From Sphaerochaetaceae bacterium (GTDB taxonomy: Bacteria > Spirochaetota > Spirochaetia > Sphaerochaetales > Sphaerochaetaceae), in assembly GCA_024405015.1 (NCBI GenBank), contig JAKSPE010000010.1, forward strand, positions 1 to 64,000: a stretch of 64,000 nucleotides of DNA. The letters are read 5' to 3'. The translations under genes were made by a program, and so were the position numbers. A model generated the notes under the pieces. It searched no databases and had not been told where the DNA came from. It worked only from the letters and a program-made list of their open reading frames with translations. Below are positions 1-20,539 of this stretch, piece after piece. Within the stretch, counting starts at the first letter, position 1; the number at the start of each line of letters is the position of its first letter.

Positions 1-78
1 GGAACGCTCTTCTACCTCCGTGATGGCAATATAAGTGAAGTTTGGGGCAGAAATGGTGAAATTGTTGATTTAATCTAA
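1..78 (+). CDS. 3' end of an unidentified protein (partial)
   Basis: An open frame runs from the first base to a TAA at 76-78 and encodes 25 residues ending in GEIVDLI. The gene starts outside the window and the fragment is too short to assign. It is followed by a long AT-rich gap before the hydrogenase operon, so it probably belongs to a separate transcript. Confidence 0.45.
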   Translation, partial: GTLFYLRDGNISEVWGRNGEIVDLI

Positions 79-181
79 CTATTAAGAATATTAAATTGAC
101 ATAATCTTTCTAAAACGTACAAGCAGATAATTATCTCTTTGGTAAAAATATGCATATATGTATATTACTTTGCGCTTTTGC

Positions 182-251
182 TTGATTTTTCCCAGCAACT
201 AATATATTACTTGAAAATGGCTGCATGCTCGACATACAGCCGTTTTTGGAG
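182..251 (+). promoter_or_regulatory. Candidate promoter and leader hairpin of the hydrogenase operon
   Basis: TTGATT at 182-187 and TATTAC at 205-210 are 17 bp apart, predicting a transcript start near 217. A hairpin follows at once: GGCTG (219-223) pairs with CAGCC (237-241), trailed by a T run. The Shine-Dalgarno GGAG is at 248-251. The -35 is imperfect, so the assignment is tentative. The hairpin plus T run could also act as a weak attenuator. Confidence 0.35.
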
Positions 252-260
252 AAAAACAAA

Positions 261-737
261 ATGGAAATTAACTATGCTATCGTGGATGAGATCCTTACTG
301 CCTACAATTACAAGCAGCAGTACATCATCGCAATCCTCCAGAAGATCCAGGAACATTATCGATATCTTCCGAAAGAGGTCTTCCCTTATCTTGCACAGGA
401 GCTTGGCATGAGTGAGGCTCGCATCTTCAGCGTCGCCACATTCTATGAGAACTTCTCCCTTGAACCAAAGGGAAAGTATGAAATCAAGTGCTGTAACGGA
501 ACAGCCTGCCATGTCAGAAATTCAATCCCAATTCTTGAGAGGATCAGAGCGGAACTCGGACTTGAAGAAGGTCAGAAGACAACTGCTGACGGTCTTTTCA
601 CTGTTGAGACTGTCTCCTGTCTCGGAGCCTGTGGTCTTGCCCCTGTCATGATGGTCAATGGCGAGGTCAATCCATCCATGACACCTGAGAAGGCTGTCGA
701 GGTCATCAATGGTCTCAAGCGCAAAGAGGAGGCCTGA
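261..737 (+). CDS. hydC: Bifurcating [FeFe]-hydrogenase, NuoE-like subunit (HydC)
   Basis: 158-residue thioredoxin-fold [2Fe-2S] protein of the NuoE/HydC family, the small electron-transfer subunit of NADH/ferredoxin-linked [FeFe]-hydrogenases. The four cluster cysteines are visible: the CNGTAC pair near residues 88-93 and the CLGAC pair near 130-134. The N-terminal helical part (ILQKIQEHYRYLPKEV) is typical. ATG at 261 is chosen because GGAG lies 9 bases upstream and the protein then has normal family length; an in-frame upstream ATG at 225 has no such site. It is first in a tight three-gene operon, with hydB starting one base after its stop. A NuoE of a respiratory complex is excluded by the adjacent hydrogenase gene. 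Confidence 0.93.
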   Translation: MEINYAIVDEILTAYNYKQQYIIAILQKIQEHYRYLPKEVFPYLAQELGMSEARIFSVATFYENFSLEPKGKYEIKCCNGTACHVRNSIPILERIRAELGLEEGQKTTADGLFTVETVSCLGACGLAPVMMVNGEVNPSMTPEKAVEVINGLKRKEEA

Positions 738-738
738 A

Positions 739-2613
739 ATGCTCAAGAACAGAAAAGATTTTGATAAGCTGGTAAAGAGTCTGTCCGAATCCTACAAGGA
801 AGTGACAAACCGCATTGTCGTCTGCTGCGGAACAGGTTGTGTCGCAGGCGGATCCATGAAGGTCTATGAGAAGCTGCAGGAAATCCTCAAGAGCAAGGGC
901 ATCGGCGTGGTGCTTGAGCTTGAGAAGGAGCACTTTGAAGGCGATATGAACGTCACAAAGAGCGGATGTGTCGGCTTCTGTGAAATGGGACCACTGGTAA
1001 GAATCGAGCCTCAGGGTTGGCTTTACACAAAGGTCAAGGTTGAGGATTGTGAGGAGATCGTTGAGAAGACCGTTCTCAAGGGTGAGCACATCGAGCGCCT
1101 TGCCTATAGCATGGCCGGCAAGATGTTCGCCAAGCAGAATGAGATCCCATTCTATAAGAAACAGACAAGAATCCTGTTTGACCTCAATGGTGTCATCAAT
1201 GCTGAGTCCATCAAGGAATACATTGCCGTTGGTGGATACAGCGCATTCGTGAAAGCCCTCTTTGAGATGGATCCGGATGTCGTTGTTGACGAGATCGTCA
1301 AGTCCGGTCTTCGCGGACGTGGCGGTGGCGGATTCCCAACTGGCAAGAAGTGGCAGCAGGTAAGAGCCGCAAAGGCTGACCAGAAATATGTCGTCTGTAA
1401 TGGAGACGAGGGCGACCCAGGTGCCTTCATGGATGAAGGTGTCATGGAAGGCGTTCCACACAAGCTCCTTGAAGGTATGATGATTGCCGCTCTTGCAGTC
1501 GGTGCCTCCGAAGGTTACATCTACGTTCGTGCAGAGTATCCTCTTGCCGTCCATAGACTTCAGATTGCCATCGCCAAGGCTGAGGAACTCGGACTTCTCG
1601 GAAAGAACATCCTCGGTTCCGGATTCGATTTCAAGCTTTCCATCTGCCGTGGTGCAGGTGCATTCGTCTGTGGTGAGGGTAGTGCACTTACCGCTTCCAT
1701 CGAAGGAAAGAGAGGTTTCCCTCGTGTTAAGCCACCAAGAACTACCGAACACGGACTGTTTGATAAGCCGACTGTTCTCAATAACGTTGAGACATTCGCC
1801 AACGTTCCGGCCATCATCAACAAGGGCTCTGCCTGGTATGCCTCCATTGGAACACCAACCAGCTCCGGAACAAAGGCTTTCGCCGTCACAGGAAACATCC
1901 GCAATACAGGCCTCATCGAGGTTCCAATGGGAACCACTCTCAAGGAGATCATCTATGATATCGGTGGTGGCATGAGAGGAGATACTGAGTTCAAGGCTGT
2001 CCAGATCGGTGGACCATCCGGTGCATGTCTGACCAAGGAGCATATGGACCTTCCACTTGACTTTGATAACCTCAAGAAGGTCGGTGCCATGATCGGTTCC
2101 GGCGGACTTGTCGTGATGGACGAGAAGACCTGTATGGTAGAGGTTGCACGATTCTTCATGAACTTCACCCAGAACGAGTCCTGTGGAAAGTGCGTTCCAT
2201 GTCGTGAAGGTACCAAGCGCATGCTCGAGGTTCTGCAGAGAATCGTCGATGGCCAGGGAAAGGACGGAGACATTGAGCTTCTCGAGGAGATTGCGGATAC
2301 CGTCAAGTCCTGTGCACTGTGCGGACTTGGAAAGAGTGCTCCGAACCCGGTTCTCAGCACCATCAAGAATTTCCGCAACGAGTATGAGGCCCATATCTAT
2401 GATAAGAAGTGTCCTGCTGGCGCATGTCAGAGACTCAAGCACTATGTGATTGACCCAGCCATCTGTAAGGGTTGTTCCAAGTGTGCCAGAAACTGTCCTG
2501 CAGATGCCATCTCCGGAACCATCAGATCACCTTTCACCATTGATGAGAACAAGTGTATCAAGTGTGGAAGTTGTGTAAGCGGCTGTGCATTCGGCGCAAT
2601 CAAGGAGGTATGA
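739..2613 (+). CDS. hydB: Bifurcating [FeFe]-hydrogenase, NuoF-like flavin subunit (HydB)
   Basis: 624-residue NADH-binding flavoprotein subunit. Order of parts: an N-terminal thioredoxin-like [2Fe-2S] domain (CCGTGCVAGG near residue 30), the NuoF core with the glycine-rich nucleotide/FMN loop GRGGGGFPTGKKW near 190, an SLBB region, the [4Fe-4S] motif ESCGKCVPCREG near 480, and two C-terminal ferredoxin [4Fe-4S] motifs (CKGCSKCARNCP and CIKCGSCVSGC). The extra ferredoxin tail separates HydB from plain NuoF. In this family FMN is the proposed bifurcation site linking NADH, ferredoxin and the H-cluster subunit. ATG at 739 follows AGAGGAGG, which lies in the end of hydC. The loop usually written CGEETAL reads CGEGSAL here. 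Confidence 0.94.
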   Translation: MLKNRKDFDKLVKSLSESYKEVTNRIVVCCGTGCVAGGSMKVYEKLQEILKSKGIGVVLELEKEHFEGDMNVTKSGCVGFCEMGPLVRIEPQGWLYTKVKVEDCEEIVEKTVLKGEHIERLAYSMAGKMFAKQNEIPFYKKQTRILFDLNGVINAESIKEYIAVGGYSAFVKALFEMDPDVVVDEIVKSGLRGRGGGGFPTGKKWQQVRAAKADQKYVVCNGDEGDPGAFMDEGVMEGVPHKLLEGMMIAALAVGASEGYIYVRAEYPLAVHRLQIAIAKAEELGLLGKNILGSGFDFKLSICRGAGAFVCGEGSALTASIEGKRGFPRVKPPRTTEHGLFDKPTVLNNVETFANVPAIINKGSAWYASIGTPTSSGTKAFAVTGNIRNTGLIEVPMGTTLKEIIYDIGGGMRGDTEFKAVQIGGPSGACLTKEHMDLPLDFDNLKKVGAMIGSGGLVVMDEKTCMVEVARFFMNFTQNESCGKCVPCREGTKRMLEVLQRIVDGQGKDGDIELLEEIADTVKSCALCGLGKSAPNPVLSTIKNFRNEYEAHIYDKKCPAGACQRLKHYVIDPAICKGCSKCARNCPADAISGTIRSPFTIDENKCIKCGSCVSGCAFGAIKEV

Positions 2614-2614
2614 C

Positions 2615-4312
2615 ATGGCAGACAAGCAGTATATGACCATTGACGGTATTCTCACCGAAATCAATGGAGAGAAGAACCTTCTTGAGGTCATCCGAAAAAC
2701 AGGAATCAAGATGCCTACCTTCTGCTACTACACCGAACTTTCCGTTTATGGTGCCTGCAGAATGTGTATGGTCGAAACCGATAGAGGCAGCCTCGAGGCT
2801 GCATGTTCCACTCCTCCAAAAGCAGGAATGAACATCAAGACAAACACAGAGAGACTCAGAAAGTACCGAAAGAACATTCTGGAGCTGATTCTCGCTAACC
2901 ACTGCACCGACTGTAACACCTGCCAGAAGAACAAGAGCTGTAAGCTGCAGGACCTTGCCATGAGATTTGACCTCAAGGATGTCAGATTCCCGAATACAAG
3001 TGCCAAGAAGAAGTATACAGACAATTCCTCCAAGTGCATCACCATCAACAGAGACAAGTGCATCCTCTGTGGTGACTGTGTCAGAATGTGTAACGAGATT
3101 CAGGGAGTCGGAGCCATTGATTTTGCATTCCGCGGTTCCAACATGATGATCAGCACATCCTTCTCAAAGCCTCTTGCCGAGTCCCCATGTGTCGGATGCG
3201 GACAGTGTGCCGCTGTCTGTCCAACCGGTGCCATCGTCGTCAAGAACGATGTCGACAAGCTGTGGGCTGCCCTTGATGATCCAAACGTCAGAACAACCAT
3301 CCAGATTGCTCCAGCCGTTCGTGTCGCCATCGGACAGGAACTGAGAATGCATGTCGGAGACAACGTCATGAACAGCATCGTCGCATCCCTGCGAAGAATG
3401 GGATTCGATGAGGTCTATGACACAACACTCGGTGCTGACCTGACAGTCTTCGAGGAGACTGCTGAGTTCATCAAGCGTCTGAAAAGTGGCGAGAACCTTC
3501 CACTGATCACATCCTGCTGTCCAGGTTGGATCCAGTATGCCGAAAAGCGTCACCCAGAGCTCCTCAAGAACATCTCAACCTGCAAATCTCCAATGGAGAT
3601 GTTCGCAGCCATCCAGAAGCAGAAGGCAAAGGACGAAGGCCGCAAGGTGTTCCATGCAGCAGTCATGCCATGTACAGCCAAGAAGTTCGAGGCCGCAAGA
3701 CCTGAGTTCCAGGTGGACGGTGAGCCTGATGTCGATGCTGTCATCACAACCAAGGAACTGATTCGCATGATCAAGGAATCCGGTGTCCAGTTCGATGAGA
3801 TCGAGCCGGATACAGTCGATGCCCCAACCAACGTCGCCTCCGGAGCCGGTGTCATCTTCGGCACAACCGGTGGTGTCTGTGAGGCCGTTCTCAGACACGT
3901 TGTCACAGACAAGTCCAAGACAGCACTCATCAACATCGCAGAGATGGGAGAGCGTGGTCGCGAGGGAATCAAGAAGTTCGATGTCACACTCGGAGACAAG
4001 ACTCTCAAGCTGGCTGTCGTCAGTGGCCTTGGAAATGCCGAGAAGGTCATCCAGCAGCTTCAGGCCGGAGAGCATTTTGACTTCATTGAGATCATGGCCT
4101 GCCCAGGTGGTTGTGTCCATGGTGGTGGTCAGCCATATGCCAAGAGCGAGCCTAAGGCTCAGCGCACAACAGGTCTCTATCGAACCGACAAGACTCTTGC
4201 TGTCAGACGAAGTGAGGAGAACCCTTACATTCAGGTCCTTTACAATGGAATCCTGAAGAATCGTGAGCATAAGCTTCTGCATGTTGACTACGTCAAGGAA
4301 GAGAAGAAATGA
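2615..4312 (+). CDS. hydA: [FeFe]-hydrogenase catalytic subunit (HydA, bifurcating type)
   Basis: 565-residue catalytic subunit. An N-terminal [2Fe-2S] domain is followed by the His-ligated [4Fe-4S] motif (NHCTDCNTCQKNKSC, near residue 105), two [4Fe-4S] ferredoxin motifs (CILCGDCVRMC and CVGCGQCAAVCP) and the H-cluster domain. All three H-cluster signatures are intact: TSCCPGW near 298, MPCTAKKFE near 351 and EIMACPGGCVHGGGQP near 491. It lacks the extra C-terminal [2Fe-2S] extension of the longest family members. ATG at 2615 follows AAGGAGG and starts one base after the hydB stop. With hydB and hydC it should reversibly couple NADH plus reduced ferredoxin to hydrogen. The maturases HydEFG are not in this window. 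Confidence 0.96.
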   Translation: MADKQYMTIDGILTEINGEKNLLEVIRKTGIKMPTFCYYTELSVYGACRMCMVETDRGSLEAACSTPPKAGMNIKTNTERLRKYRKNILELILANHCTDCNTCQKNKSCKLQDLAMRFDLKDVRFPNTSAKKKYTDNSSKCITINRDKCILCGDCVRMCNEIQGVGAIDFAFRGSNMMISTSFSKPLAESPCVGCGQCAAVCPTGAIVVKNDVDKLWAALDDPNVRTTIQIAPAVRVAIGQELRMHVGDNVMNSIVASLRRMGFDEVYDTTLGADLTVFEETAEFIKRLKSGENLPLITSCCPGWIQYAEKRHPELLKNISTCKSPMEMFAAIQKQKAKDEGRKVFHAAVMPCTAKKFEAARPEFQVDGEPDVDAVITTKELIRMIKESGVQFDEIEPDTVDAPTNVASGAGVIFGTTGGVCEAVLRHVVTDKSKTALINIAEMGERGREGIKKFDVTLGDKTLKLAVVSGLGNAEKVIQQLQAGEHFDFIEIMACPGGCVHGGGQPYAKSEPKAQRTTGLYRTDKTLAVRRSEENPYIQVLYNGILKNREHKLLHVDYVKEEKK

Positions 4313-17098: not shown

Positions 17099-17131
17099 CG
17101 AGGCTGTGAGTTCAATGGATTCACAGCCTCG
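17099..17131. terminator. Bidirectional terminator between convergent genes
   Basis: CGAGGCTGTGA (17099-17109) and TCACAGCCTCG (17121-17131) form an 11-bp perfect stem. The minus-strand exit reads TCAATTTTTG and the plus-strand exit ATTCGTTTTG, so both the GNAT operon and the glycosyltransferase operon can end here. Confidence 0.85.
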
Positions 17132-17143
17132 ATTCGTTTTGTC

Positions 17144-18916
17144 TCAGTCCAGCTGAGGAACGGTGATGTAGGAGAGCTCTGTCTGGTACTCTCTCTCGTA
17201 GACCTCTTTCCAGACTTCGAAGTTTCTCTGCTTGAGGTCCTCGATTCGATCGCGGTAGCCCAGCTCTGCATTCGGATAGATCGGCTTTTCGATGTGGATG
17301 GTGTATTCCTGAATCGGGAAGCCTGCCTCATCGATGTACTCGGAGTCCTTCATGGTGATGAAGCATGGGAGAACCGGAACATTGGCCTTGCATGCGAATA
17401 CGTAGGCGCCCCTTTTCAGAGGTTTTGGCTTTCGGTAGTTCCACCACATGCTCTGCTCTGGATACACGAGAACAAAGTGTCCGTCCTTCAGAAGCTTGAC
17501 TGCAGCCTCCTGGAACTTTTTCATCGTCTCAAGGTTGGAGGACAGTGGCAGGGTGTTGCAGTTGCGCATCAGAAAACCGTAGAAGCCTGGGAAGTTGGTG
17601 TAGTTTCCTTCGCGGATGACACGGTAGAACTTTCTGCGTGGCTGGTCTGCTGCCTCATAGGCAAGCTGGATGGCAAAGCTGTCAAAGGCATTGAAATGGT
17701 TGCAGGTCACAAGGGCACCTTCCTGCATGTTCTTGAAATTCTCAAGACCCTTGATGTCCTTGATGATCAGCTGCTTGTCCTTGACCAGTCGGTCCACCAG
17801 CTTGTGTGCCATGCGGAAGGCCATTTTTGTCTTGATTCTTTCACGGATGGTATGGTTGAGGTAGTCAATGTCATCTGGCATCAGAACCGGTGCTGGTGGG
17901 TCGTCCTCGACATCCTTGTCAAAGATTCCTTCCTTCTCGTATGCTCGGATCTTCTGCAAGATGGCGATGCGGTCTGCAGCCTGTCTCTTTCGGATGACGT
18001 TCAGGTAAGTGTCGTCCTTGTTCGTCTCCTTGATGGCGAGGTTCAGAAGGTTCTCGTAGCCCTTTTTGTCACGCTCACGCTGCTCGTCGGTGTAGGAGTG
18101 CAGGTCCTCGAGAATCGACTCGTAGACCCATGTCTTTTTGGCATAGCTGTAGAAGATGTCGGCAAACGGACAGCTTTCATAATGCCATGGCTTGTTGAAC
18201 ATGATGTAATGGATGACCTTTGCTTCCTCAATCGGGTAAGAAAGGGTTCCGAAGACTTCGGTGTTCCATCTCTGGTCAATGAAGAGGGTGTGGTCCTTGC
18301 AAAGCAGGTTCAGATAGTCCTCGTCCTGTGTGACGACACAGTCATAGACCTGCAGGATGTTGATGAATCGGTCAAGGACGTTTCGTTCTCGGAAGGCAAC
18401 ACAGTTGATCAGAAGAAGACCGGCATTGAAATACAGGTTGCGGTCAAGACCAAGGCACTTTTCGACGTAGGTGCCGTATTCATCGACCTGGACCATGGCC
18501 TGCTCATGGCAAGCGCCCAGGACGTAGTCGGCAATGTCAATGTCAAAGAGGTCTGCCACATCACCCTGAATGATGGTGTCGCTGTCGATGTAGATGGCCT
18601 TGTCGAACTCCGGATGCATGTCGGCGATGAAGAGTCTGTAGTAGGTGGTCTTTGAATAGTAGTCTCGAAGTGGGAACTTGTGCTCAATGGACTTGAGGTA
18701 GTCGGACACGTCCTCGAAACTGATCTCAAAGCCGTCCCTTTCCAGGGTTTTGACCTTTGCCTGGCTTTCCGGAAGGACATCGGAATGCAAGAAGTGGATC
18801 TTGTAAAGGACATCGTCCCTTTTGGCGTTCTCACGCATGGAGTAGAGGGAGACGATTCCGTATTTGAGAAAACGCTCATCAAGAGCAAAGAATACTGGTA
18901 CTATCTTTCTGTTCAT
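17144..18916 (-). CDS. Fused GT8 glycosyltransferase and PlsC-type acyltransferase
   Basis: 590-residue two-domain protein. Residues 1 to about 270 are a family 8 glycosyltransferase with the metal-binding DSD at 111-113 (IYIDSDTIIQGD), FNAGLLLINC and the C-terminal HYIMFNKPWHY. After a charged linker, residues from about 380 form a lysophosphatidate-acyltransferase-like domain with the HX4D motif NHFNAFD at 406-412 and YPEQSMWWNYRKPKPLKRGA, the PEG-type block. No membrane helix is obvious. The ATG overlaps the stop of the preceding GT8 gene (TAATG), indicating coupling. The likely role is sequential glycosylation and acylation of a lipid or envelope glycan; no precise product can be named. 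Confidence 0.85.
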   Translation of the reverse strand: MNRKIVPVFFALDERFLKYGIVSLYSMRENAKRDDVLYKIHFLHSDVLPESQAKVKTLERDGFEISFEDVSDYLKSIEHKFPLRDYYSKTTYYRLFIADMHPEFDKAIYIDSDTIIQGDVADLFDIDIADYVLGACHEQAMVQVDEYGTYVEKCLGLDRNLYFNAGLLLINCVAFRERNVLDRFINILQVYDCVVTQDEDYLNLLCKDHTLFIDQRWNTEVFGTLSYPIEEAKVIHYIMFNKPWHYESCPFADIFYSYAKKTWVYESILEDLHSYTDEQRERDKKGYENLLNLAIKETNKDDTYLNVIRKRQAADRIAILQKIRAYEKEGIFDKDVEDDPPAPVLMPDDIDYLNHTIRERIKTKMAFRMAHKLVDRLVKDKQLIIKDIKGLENFKNMQEGALVTCNHFNAFDSFAIQLAYEAADQPRRKFYRVIREGNYTNFPGFYGFLMRNCNTLPLSSNLETMKKFQEAAVKLLKDGHFVLVYPEQSMWWNYRKPKPLKRGAYVFACKANVPVLPCFITMKDSEYIDEAGFPIQEYTIHIEKPIYPNAELGYRDRIEDLKQRNFEVWKEVYEREYQTELSYITVPQLD

Positions 18917-19749
18917 TATCTGTTCCCCTTGTTGAATTCTGCTTTCAGTCTGCTGTACTCACTGAGAATGTCGTCAAACTGTGTGTAATGGAACACTTTG
19001 TGCATCTTCTCGACATGCCACTGCTTGATGTTGTCGGTGTGCGGGTATGGCAAGTAGAAGAGGCGCTTTGAGAAATGTCTGACGACGGTGTGCTTGTGCA
19101 GAAACTTCTGGTCGTTGAACCTCTGTGGAAGCAGTTTCTTTCTTGTGGTTGATCGGATCAGTGCGCTCTGGTCTGCGAAGGTGAGTTTCTTCTTGCAAAT
19201 CCATTCCCTTGCTTTCTGGAACAGACCTGTTTCACGACATCGCTTCATGTTGAAGAGAATCACACCTGCATTGATGTAGCGTGGGTTGATCAGATATTTT
19301 CCGTAATGGTCGTTTGCAGCTGCATATTCATAATCGGTTACGTCAATGTCGTACAGCAGATGGATATCACGGTTGAACATGATATCGGCATCCAGGTACA
19401 GAAGCTTGTCCGGCATGTCCGGTACAAGGTCTGCAAACAGTCGGATCAGGGTGTAAGGGGAGCAGTAGGCGCTCTCGTTCGGGCATCCTGAGAAATGCTT
19501 CATGTACAGGTCTGTGACATCATACTTTCTGACGCTGTTGTCTTTGTTGTAGACCTTGACGACCTTGTCGAAGAAGATGATCTGCTCTTCTGTGATAGGA
19601 ACGTAGTTCTCCTTCAGATGTGAGACATCCATGGTGAAAAGATGGAAGCTGAATGGCTCCTGGGAGTCTGTACGCTTGAGTATGGATAGGGCGGATGTCA
19701 TAAAGCCGTCAAACACGGCTTCGTTTCCGCAATAAAGGACGTTAACCAT
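18916..19749 (-). CDS. Family 8 glycosyltransferase
   Basis: 277-residue GT8 protein. The DXD motif is in LLYLDADIMFNRD, followed by the family block RYINAGVILFNMKRC. GT8 enzymes transfer galactose or glucose from UDP-sugars with retention, often onto lipid-linked acceptors. Its ATG overlaps the last 8 bases of the upstream acyltransferase gene, and its stop overlaps the ATG of the downstream fusion, so the three genes are translationally coupled. Acceptor and sugar are unknown. Confidence 0.88.
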   Translation of the reverse strand: MVNVLYCGNEAVFDGFMTSALSILKRTDSQEPFSFHLFTMDVSHLKENYVPITEEQIIFFDKVVKVYNKDNSVRKYDVTDLYMKHFSGCPNESAYCSPYTLIRLFADLVPDMPDKLLYLDADIMFNRDIHLLYDIDVTDYEYAAANDHYGKYLINPRYINAGVILFNMKRCRETGLFQKAREWICKKKLTFADQSALIRSTTRKKLLPQRFNDQKFLHKHTVVRHFSKRLFYLPYPHTDNIKQWHVEKMHKVFHYTQFDDILSEYSRLKAEFNKGNR

Positions 19750-20539
19750 TGGAATCTCCTTTGTCTGTTTCCTTCTTGATGTATTTCACGTATTCCACAT
19801 CCGAATGCTGGGACAGCTGTACCATCTGGTTGTACACGAGATCACGCAGCTGCTTTCGCTGCTCCTTTGCCGTCAGATTCTCATCCGGGAAGAAAGGCCC
19901 TTTGATGTAGGTCACAATCTGCGGTCTTCTGCCTTTGCCTCTGTCCTTGTAGGTGTTGACGAAGCAGAAGGTCGGTGCCTTCATCTGAACCGGATAGGCG
20001 AAAGACGTCTCTGCAAAAGGTCTGATGTGGGTGTAGTAAGGCCAGATATGGGCCTCTGGGTAGATGACTACCGGATTGCCACGTCGGATTCTTTTTTCAA
20101 TCGCATTTCGGAAGTTGCGGTAGGCGGACACGCCATCTGGAATCGGAAGTCCTCCAAGGGCAGGAACCATCTTGCCGAACACCGGAACATTCAGGTTGTT
20201 CGGATGGATGATGACATAGTTGAGCCTTGGATAGGTCAGACATGCCTGCATGAGGGCATCGCCCATAGGCTGGGTATGGTTTCCGAAAAGGAAGATTCCC
20301 TGCTTGCGATAAGGCTTGAGCAGGTCTGCACCGACCACCTTTCTGTGAAATACTAATTTTGTGTACAGGTAAGCGAAAGGGTACATGACGATTCTGTAAC
20401 AGAAGAACCTACGGACCTTCTTGCCAAAGGAGGAATCATCGTAGTCGTAGGATGCATCGATTGCCCTTGGTGTGGTTTTGAAGGTTGAGAATTCTTCGTT
20501 CAGTTCGTCTGTGTAATAGATTACCTGTTGTTCTTTCAT
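19742..20539 (-). CDS. PlsC-like 1-acylglycerol-3-phosphate acyltransferase family protein
   Basis: 265-residue acyltransferase. The substrate-site block VIYPEAHIWPYYTHIRPF is clear. The catalytic motif reads GNHTQPMGDAL, with five residues between His and Asp rather than the canonical four. A hydrophobic stretch near residue 45 (RIVMYPFAYLYTKLVF) may anchor it to the membrane. No Shine-Dalgarno precedes ATG 20539. It is first of three overlapping genes, with two GT8 proteins behind it, so a glycolipid or lipoglycan role is inferred. Confidence 0.82.
   Translation of the reverse strand: MKEQQVIYYTDELNEEFSTFKTTPRAIDASYDYDDSSFGKKVRRFFCYRIVMYPFAYLYTKLVFHRKVVGADLLKPYRKQGIFLFGNHTQPMGDALMQACLTYPRLNYVIIHPNNLNVPVFGKMVPALGGLPIPDGVSAYRNFRNAIEKRIRRGNPVVIYPEAHIWPYYTHIRPFAETSFAYPVQMKAPTFCFVNTYKDRGKGRRPQIVTYIKGPFFPDENLTAKEQRKQLRDLVYNQMVQLSQHSDVEYVKYIKKETDKGDSNG

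What the first reader, a model, noticed from the sequence alone, without database searches (positions are those of the whole stretch)
17144..20539. Overlapping acyltransferase/GT8 genes followed by a GT8-acyltransferase fusion
Three coupled genes encode PlsC, GT8 and a 590-residue protein carrying both activities. Having the same two activities once split and once fused suggests two consecutive rounds of sugar and acyl transfer onto one lipid or lipoglycan. I do not recognise this arrangement as a described pathway; it could make a spirochaete-type glycolipid.
Basis: partly seen in the sequence, partly recalled or inferred. Interest (0 to 1): 0.6.

Follow-up and report, generated by a model that had tools for sequence, protein, structure and literature searches.

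The report
Four-enzyme sugar-and-acyl lipid gene module
Three neighbouring genes in a ruminant-gut spirochaete encode four enzyme activities, two that add sugars and two that add fatty acids, and the same set of four recurs in gut Clostridia and on the plasmids of beer-spoiling lactic acid bacteria, where its membrane product is still unknown.

Summary
On the minus strand lie A (acyltransferase, 265 aa), G (GT8, 277 aa) and F (GT8-acyltransferase fusion, 590 aa), overlapping by 8 and 1 bp. It is not an assembly error: 70 of 80 loci kept from a genome scan carry A-G-F in that order.

The operon is one form of a four-activity module (A, G, GT8b, AT2). Elsewhere GT8b and AT2 are separate neighbouring genes; they fused at least twice (one fused clade rejected, p-AU 0.010 and 0.003). 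Gene order is shuffled freely, and in four Treponema-like genomes a GT2 with hydrophobic segments replaces GT8b.

Each part is orthologous to one of the four lipid/cell-wall genes that surround the hop-resistance gene horA on brewery plasmids. Papers list those genes as beer-spoiler-associated and highly transcribed in beer; I found no assigned product.

Best reading: GT8b and AT2 act one after the other on a membrane lipid, and G and A add a second sugar and acyl chain, giving an acylated glycolipid. The two-round logic is partly supported, since A and G come and go together while GT8b-AT2 also occurs alone. 'Spirochaete-type' is wrong: kinship is with Clostridia. Acceptor, sugars and product remain inference.

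The parts
19742..20539 (-). A (AT1): PlsC-like acyltransferase, 265 aa, with the variant motif NH-x5-D (NHTQPMGD) and YPEAHIWPYYT
   Evidence: PF01553 30.6 bits, cut-off 23; NH-x5-D in 101 of 103 and NH-x4-D in 0 of 103 A proteins; model pLDDT 87.1, best PDB match PlsC 5kym Z 16.2; ortholog in the P. claussenii horA region 37%, 6e-50
18916..19749 (-). G (GT8a): stand-alone family 8 glycosyltransferase, 277 aa, DxD motif LYLDAD
   Evidence: PF01501 63.2 bits, cut-off 24.3; LY[LM]DxD in 103 of 104 G proteins; ortholog upstream of horA 32%, 9e-57
17144..18916 (-). F: fusion of GT8b (about residues 1-300) and acyltransferase AT2 (about 310-590), 590 aa
   Evidence: PF01501 150.9 bits and PF01553 50.1 bits; full-length model pLDDT 90.4, pTM 0.89; GT8b matches WbbM Z 30.6 and LgtC Z 26.9; NH-x4-D in 123 of 124 AT2 domains
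17099..17131 (.). Hairpin (15 pairs) between the convergent genes, likely terminator
   Evidence: pattern match; 5 terminator-like sites found, 3.7 expected from shuffles, so weak on its own; supported by its place between convergent genes

Best explanation
The operon encodes one pathway of four enzyme activities that builds an acylated glycolipid in the cytoplasmic leaflet of the membrane. GT8b of F moves a hexose from a nucleotide sugar, with retention (alpha link expected for GT8), onto a membrane lipid acceptor, most likely diacylglycerol or a simple glycerophospholipid. AT2, joined to it in one chain, then acylates that glycolipid. G adds a second sugar and A a second acyl chain. F alone would give a smaller product, which some genomes seem to stop at. 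Shown here: the four activities by family and conserved motif, their joint inheritance, the recurrent fusion of GT8b with AT2, and orthology to the horA-flanking genes. Inferred: membrane acceptor, order of steps, sugar identity, and a role in resisting membrane-active compounds.
For: Families and motifs. Fusion as a functional link: GT8b and AT2 are separate neighbouring genes in Treponema-like genomes, Clostridia, Roseburia and lactic acid bacteria, often with a 4-bp overlap; all 36 fused rows as one clade is rejected (GT8b p-AU 0.0103, AT2 0.00264), and the L109 protein runs straight across the point where its near relative L112 has a stop, a ribosome-binding site and a new start. Two units: in 24 genomes that bear the GT8b-AT2 pair, A is in 13, G in the same 13, neither in 11. 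In 392 genomes of the phylum, the 31 with G are all among the 49 that match F (several of the 49 match only as generic GT8). In 295 genomes of a clostridial order, G is in 25, F in 34, both in 23. One module in many orders: A-G-F, F-A-G, GT-AT-A-G, A-G-GT-AT, G-GT-AT-A, G-GT-A-AT. Membrane acceptor: in L140-L143 the GT8b slot holds a 414-433 aa GT2 (PF13641, three of the four scanned) whose sequence shows long hydrophobic segments. Acylation of a glycolipid sugar has precedent in the same fold: PatA acylates the mannose of PIM (PMC4792965, abstract start), and A aligns with PatA at Z 11.3. Physiology: orthologs in P. claussenii are transcribed more than 3-fold above horA in beer (PMC3765258, passages).
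Against: No lipid has been seen and no substrate tested. The best structural matches of GT8b (WbbM, LgtC, GlyE) act, as I recall, on carbohydrates or glycoproteins, not on diacylglycerol. A aligns better with PlsC (Z 16.2) and GPATs (12.8-14.4) than with PatA (11.3), so A could act on a glycerol phosphate. The two-unit rule has exceptions: A-G with an acyltransferase but no GT8b beside them (L152, L153, L155) and a lone distant G (L144). No lipid gene is conserved beside the cassette. In P. damnosus, horA, and with it probably this cluster, did not correlate with beer spoilage (8 of 13 false positives, PMC4814128).
Confidence: 0.55

Rival explanations
1. The pathway starts from a soluble acceptor: the GT8 enzymes build a glycosyl-glycerol or a disaccharide and the two acyltransferases add the two chains, so that the diacyl lipid is made last, not first.
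For: Two GTs plus two acyltransferases is the minimal set for a diacylated diglycoside. GT8b resembles enzymes with sugar acceptors. A fits PlsC and GPAT best.
Against: In L140-L143 the GT8b slot holds a GT2 with long hydrophobic segments. The GT8b-AT2 unit on its own would then make a single-chain product.
Confidence: 0.2
2. The module decorates an existing polymer or lipoglycan (lipoteichoic acid, lipooligosaccharide or capsule anchor) with sugar and acyl groups instead of making a free glycolipid.
For: The NCBIfam match of both GT8 proteins is the LPS 3-alpha-galactosyltransferase model, far below its cut-off (79.2 and 27.5 against 461 bits). The brewery copies are annotated as LPS biosynthesis glycosyltransferases (PMC6533708).
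Against: The same module occurs in organisms with and without an outer membrane (spirochaetes, Clostridia, lactobacilli), and no polymer gene is conserved next to it.
Confidence: 0.15
3. Only one glycosyltransferase and one acyltransferase do chemistry; the other two are partners that regulate or stabilise the complex.
For: G lacks the KPW motif found in GT8b in all but 11 of 104 sequences, and A has NH-x5-D in place of NH-x4-D.
Against: DxD is kept in 103 of 104 G proteins (LY[LM]DxD), the spacing of NH-x5-D in 101 of 103 A proteins, and the YPEAH motif in 99 of 103; such conservation suggests activity.
Confidence: 0.1

Closest known systems
Gene cluster around horA on plasmids of beer-spoiling lactic acid bacteria (P. 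claussenii pPECL-8, L. brevis, P. damnosus and others)
   Same: All four activities, each orthologous to the matching part here and clearly closer to it than to its paralog: G 32%, A 37%, GT8b 32%, AT2 34%. A, GT8b and AT2 are contiguous on one strand.
   Different: GT8b and AT2 are separate genes; the ABC transporter taken to be horA lies between G and A; plasmid-borne. In the window they are fused and there is no ABC transporter beside them.
Four-gene operon on a Roseburia sp. 831b plasmid
   Same: Order A-G-GT8b-AT2, the order of the window; 36-47% identity for A, G and AT2, 32% for GT8b.
   Different: Not fused; 243-kb plasmid.
Mycobacterial PIM synthesis (PimA, PimB', PatA)
   Same: Logic only: sugars and acyl chains added in turn to one phospholipid; PatA has the fold of A.
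   Different: The PIM glycosyltransferases are GT4 (recalled), not GT8; not fused; no orthology tested beyond fold.
LPS alpha-galactosyltransferases of GT8 (LgtC) and WbbM
   Same: Fold and DxD motif of GT8b: Z 26.9 and 30.6.
   Different: They act on oligosaccharide acceptors and have no acyltransferase domain (both recalled).

Membership tests
Glycosyltransferase family 8 (PF01501) | Score above the curated cut-off | tested here: met
   F 150.9 and G 63.2 bits, cut-off 24.3
Glycosyltransferase family 8 (PF01501) | DxD metal-binding motif | tested here: met
   DxD in 119 of 119 GT8b domains (a loose pattern); LY[LM]DxD in 103 of 104 G proteins
Glycosyltransferase family 8 (PF01501) | Retaining transfer from a nucleotide sugar | not testable with these tools
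   needs an assay
PlsC-type acyltransferase (PF01553) | Score above the curated cut-off | tested here: met
   F 50.1 and A 30.6 bits, cut-off 23
PlsC-type acyltransferase (PF01553) | NH-x4-D catalytic motif (definition recalled), AT2 of F | tested here: met
   123 of 124
PlsC-type acyltransferase (PF01553) | NH-x4-D catalytic motif (definition recalled), A | tested here: not met
   0 of 103; NH-x5-D in 101 of 103. A is therefore called PlsC-like, a variant, not a standard member
1-acylglycerol-3-phosphate acyltransferase (TIGR00530) | Score above the curated cut-off | tested here: not met
   F 34.9, A 12.2 bits, cut-off 102.95
horA-flanking gene cluster | Orthologs of all four sugar/acyl genes | tested here: met
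   each part matching its own counterpart best
horA-flanking gene cluster | Adjacent horA-type ABC transporter | tested here: not met
   Window neighbours are an asparaginase, a GNAT and a histidine phosphatase
Lipoteichoic acid anchor glycosyltransferases (GT28 UgtP, GT4 LafA/LafB; families recalled) | Belong to GT28 or GT4 | tested here: not met
   Only GT8 (and in F a sub-cut-off PF18404) among the glycosyltransferase families listed
Spirochaete glycolipid synthesis | Product is a spirochaete glycolipid | not testable with these tools
   no lipid data

The most novel reading that the evidence does not exclude
A so far undescribed class of acylated glycolipid, made by two rounds of GT8 glycosylation and acylation, is shared by ruminant-gut Clostridia, spirochaetes and beer-spoiling lactobacilli. 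It protects membranes against amphiphiles, and the 'hop resistance' locus of brewery plasmids is at heart this lipid pathway, with HorA perhaps serving to flip its product.
Probability: 0.25. Interest if true: 0.8.

Novelty: new variant of a known kind. Interest (0 to 1): 0.55.

Why it matters
It turns an isolated oddity into a defined, mobile four-activity module with a clear question: which lipid does it make? The brewery link gives a phenotype and genetically workable hosts; the fusion names two enzymes that probably act in sequence; and the wide spread in ruminant-gut bacteria suggests a membrane lipid that lipid surveys may have missed. It also gives the four unexplained genes around horA a testable role.

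Tried and rejected
Assembly error as the cause of the fusion: rejected. One single fusion event: rejected. A mosaic history, in which Treponema-like genomes L103-L107 took F from Clostridia but kept their own A and G, looked likely from the trees but the tests do not support it (A p-AU 0.092, AT2 0.606, GT8b 0.199; the test on G did not finish). Transfer of the cassette from Clostridia into the window's genus: favoured by its absence from the rest of the family and by A (Clostridia alone as one clade rejected, p 0.0008), but not by AT2 (p 0.725) or GT8b (p 0.099); base composition says nothing (operon 0.494, window 0.491). Conserved neighbours that would name the product: none in 80 loci. Promoter-like sites: as many as chance (3 found, 3.4 expected). 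A phage origin: one 'Bacteriophage sp.' record from human faeces (MT836196, unverified, unannotated) holds A-G-F, but it looks like bacterial DNA in a virome, and nothing more was made of it. Structural comparison of F named only GT8 folds, since that domain fills the list; AT2 was not folded alone, so its nearest fold is untested. A first suspicion that the ABC transporter by the brewery cluster was bsrA was dropped on reading PMC3765258 and PMC4394401, which name horA.

The original horA sequencing papers were not seen in any listing and not read. Papers were read as passages (PMC6533708, PMC3765258, PMC4394401, PMC4814128, PMC9728350) or as abstract starts in listings (PMC4792965, PMC8168883); none in full.
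Full report
What is there. On the minus strand of the window three genes follow one another without a gap: A (20539-19742, 265 aa), G (19749-18916, 277 aa) and F (18916-17144, 590 aa), with overlaps of 8 and 1 bp. Pfam puts an acyltransferase domain in A (30.6 bits, cut-off 23), a family 8 glycosyltransferase in G (63.2, cut-off 24.3), and both in F, at residues 8-246 and 388-520 (150.9 and 50.1 bits). Reader coordinates and domain calls are exact. Upstream lies an asparaginase gene, downstream and convergent a GNAT; none of them is a lipid gene. These are the only two GT8 matches in the held 2.03-Mb genome, estimated 84.9% complete.

The fusion is old and real. A scan of 84,980 species genomes found 493 stretches matching short patterns of F; 477 encode a relative and 80 were kept. 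Of these 80, 70 carry A, G and F in this order and on one strand, 4 carry G and F with A lost at a contig end, 1 is cut inside the cassette, and 5 carry F alone with room upstream. The records are mainly Clostridia from the guts of ruminants; the nearest (76% identity) are labelled Spirochaetales. No other gene is conserved beside the cassette.

The ancestral parts are separate genes. In Treponema-like genomes of the same class, the two halves of F are found as two neighbouring genes, GT8b then AT2. Across the loci read, the orders A-G-F, F-A-G, GT-AT-A-G, A-G-GT-AT, G-GT-AT-A and G-GT-A-AT all occur. Trees of GT8b (66 rows) and AT2 (71 rows) each need three changes between fused and split, and a tree with all 36 fused rows in one clade is rejected (p-AU 0.0103 for GT8b, 0.00264 for AT2). 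The rows are a chosen part of what was held: 25 of the 77 clostridial loci that have F, plus the window, L003, L004 and L103-L146. The second fusion is visible in the DNA: L112 has a stop, a ribosome-binding site and a new start where its close relative L109 reads straight on. Repeated fusion of the same two neighbours is the usual sign of two enzymes that act in turn.

Two units. I chose 24 genomes that bear the GT8b-AT2 pair, among them those where A and G had not been seen next to it, so 24 is not a random sample. A was found in 13, G in the same 13, neither in 11. In 392 genomes of the phylum, all 31 with G are among the 49 that match F, though several of those 49 match only as generic GT8. 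In 295 genomes of one clostridial order, G is in 25, F in 34 and both in 23. Of the two with G and no F match, one (L152) has A-G and a diverged acyltransferase without GT8b, as do L153 and L155; the other (L144) is a lone distant G. So A and G travel as a pair and nearly always with an AT2-type acyltransferase, while GT8b-AT2 can stand alone. I read this as F first, A and G later; it is an inference from distribution.

A telling substitution. In four Treponema-like genomes (L140-L143) the slot of GT8b holds a GT2 of 414-433 aa (PF13641 in the three scanned; the fourth, in L143, looks alike in sequence) with long hydrophobic segments visible in its sequence (by eye, no membrane-segment program was run). 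An enzyme of that kind would be expected to work on a membrane acceptor. This is the best hint that the module's acceptor is a lipid.

Active sites. DxD is kept in 119 of 119 GT8b domains (a loose pattern) and LY[LM]DxD in 103 of 104 G proteins. AT2 has the standard NH-x4-D in 123 of 124. A never has it (0 of 103) and instead has NH-x5-D in 101 of 103; of the two misses L136 is a 103-aa fragment and L066 was not examined. The spacing is thus a fixed trait of the A family and survives in the Roseburia, lactic acid bacterial and Treponema-like copies. F was modelled whole at pLDDT 90.4 and its GT8b matches WbbM (Z 30.6, rmsd 2.2, 267 residues) and LgtC (Z 26.9). A was modelled at pLDDT 87.1 and matches PlsC (Z 16.2, rmsd 4.0, 192 residues), GPATs (12.8-14.4), PatA (11.3) and LpxM (10.1).

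The brewery link. A protein search of 72,556 plasmids with F gave 20 records, 17 with at least 80% of F covered; 19 are from lactic acid bacteria, most from beer or breweries, and one is Roseburia. In P. claussenii pPECL-8, G's ortholog lies on one side of an ABC transporter, and A, GT8b and AT2 on the other. Orthology is one to one: 32% (9e-57), 37% (6e-50), 32% (1e-53) and 34% (3e-40), each far better than to the paralogous part. Four of the other brewery plasmids read (L125, L147, L148, L150) show the same layout; L149 does too, its G being unannotated, and in L151 an IS110 element splits A from GT8b-AT2. That the transporter is horA is taken from papers: five genes are consistently found around horA, four of them for phospholipid or cell wall synthesis, each transcribed more than 3-fold above horA in beer (PMC3765258, passages), and PMC4394401 describes the same genes in P. 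damnosus (passages). In L. brevis, two glycosyltransferases and two acyltransferases are on the plasmids of 6 of 7 beer spoilers with identical presence pattern (PMC6533708, Table 6, passages); that these four are the module is my inference, backed by strain TMW 1.2113, positive for all four there and carrying the module in L125. Against a simple role, horA did not correlate with spoilage in P. damnosus (PMC4814128). HorA is 53% identical to LmrA and transports amphiphiles (PMC9728350, passages).

Origin in the window. In the window's family F is in 5 of 139 genomes, all in its own genus, where 5 of 11 have it; several of these genomes are incomplete. Outside the genus the best identity is 64%, to Clostridia, against 53% to Treponema-like genomes. 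This points to acquisition from Clostridia, but only the A tree rejects the alternative (p 0.0008); AT2 (p 0.725) and GT8b (p 0.099) do not.

How it most likely works. GT8b transfers a hexose to a membrane lipid, AT2 acylates the result, G adds a second sugar and A a second acyl chain. Precedents for acylating the sugar of a glycolipid are PatA on PIM (PMC4792965, abstract start) and cholesteryl acyl-galactoside in Borrelia (PMC8168883, abstract start). Shown: parts, motifs, joint inheritance, recurrent fusion, orthology. Inferred: acceptor, sugars, order, function in protection.

Novelty. The families are known and the brewery copies are in print as a gene list. What I did not find in print, in ten searches of the held library, is a product, a GT8-acyltransferase fusion, or the link between the gut operon and the horA genes. 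Most subscription papers are not in that library.

Noticed in passing
L140:5451-6704, L141:5296-6597, L142:5622-6866, L143:5036-6310: A GT2 glycosyltransferase with hydrophobic segments takes the place of GT8b between G and AT2 in four Treponema-like genomes.
   Followed up: partly
L152, L153, L155: Three clostridial loci have A, G and a diverged AT2 directly adjoining, with no GT8b beside them.
   Followed up: partly
L126 (MT836196.1) 45-3603: A record deposited as 'Bacteriophage sp.' from human faeces holds the whole A-G-F cassette; probably bacterial DNA in a virome.
   Followed up: partly
L131:6232-8035: Two tandem copies of G after GT8b-AT2-A in genome G282, 69% and 55% identical to the window's G.
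   Followed up: no
L151:1343-2572: An IS110 element splits A from GT8b-AT2 on P. damnosus plasmid pL21535-2.
   Followed up: no
L149:1066-1872: An unannotated ORF on P. inopinatus plasmid pLDW-13 scores as G (320 bits), so the record's gene list misses it.
   Followed up: no
L032:1358 onward: Eight related ORFs in tandem upstream of the cassette (cluster c3), a family found in this locus only.
   Followed up: no
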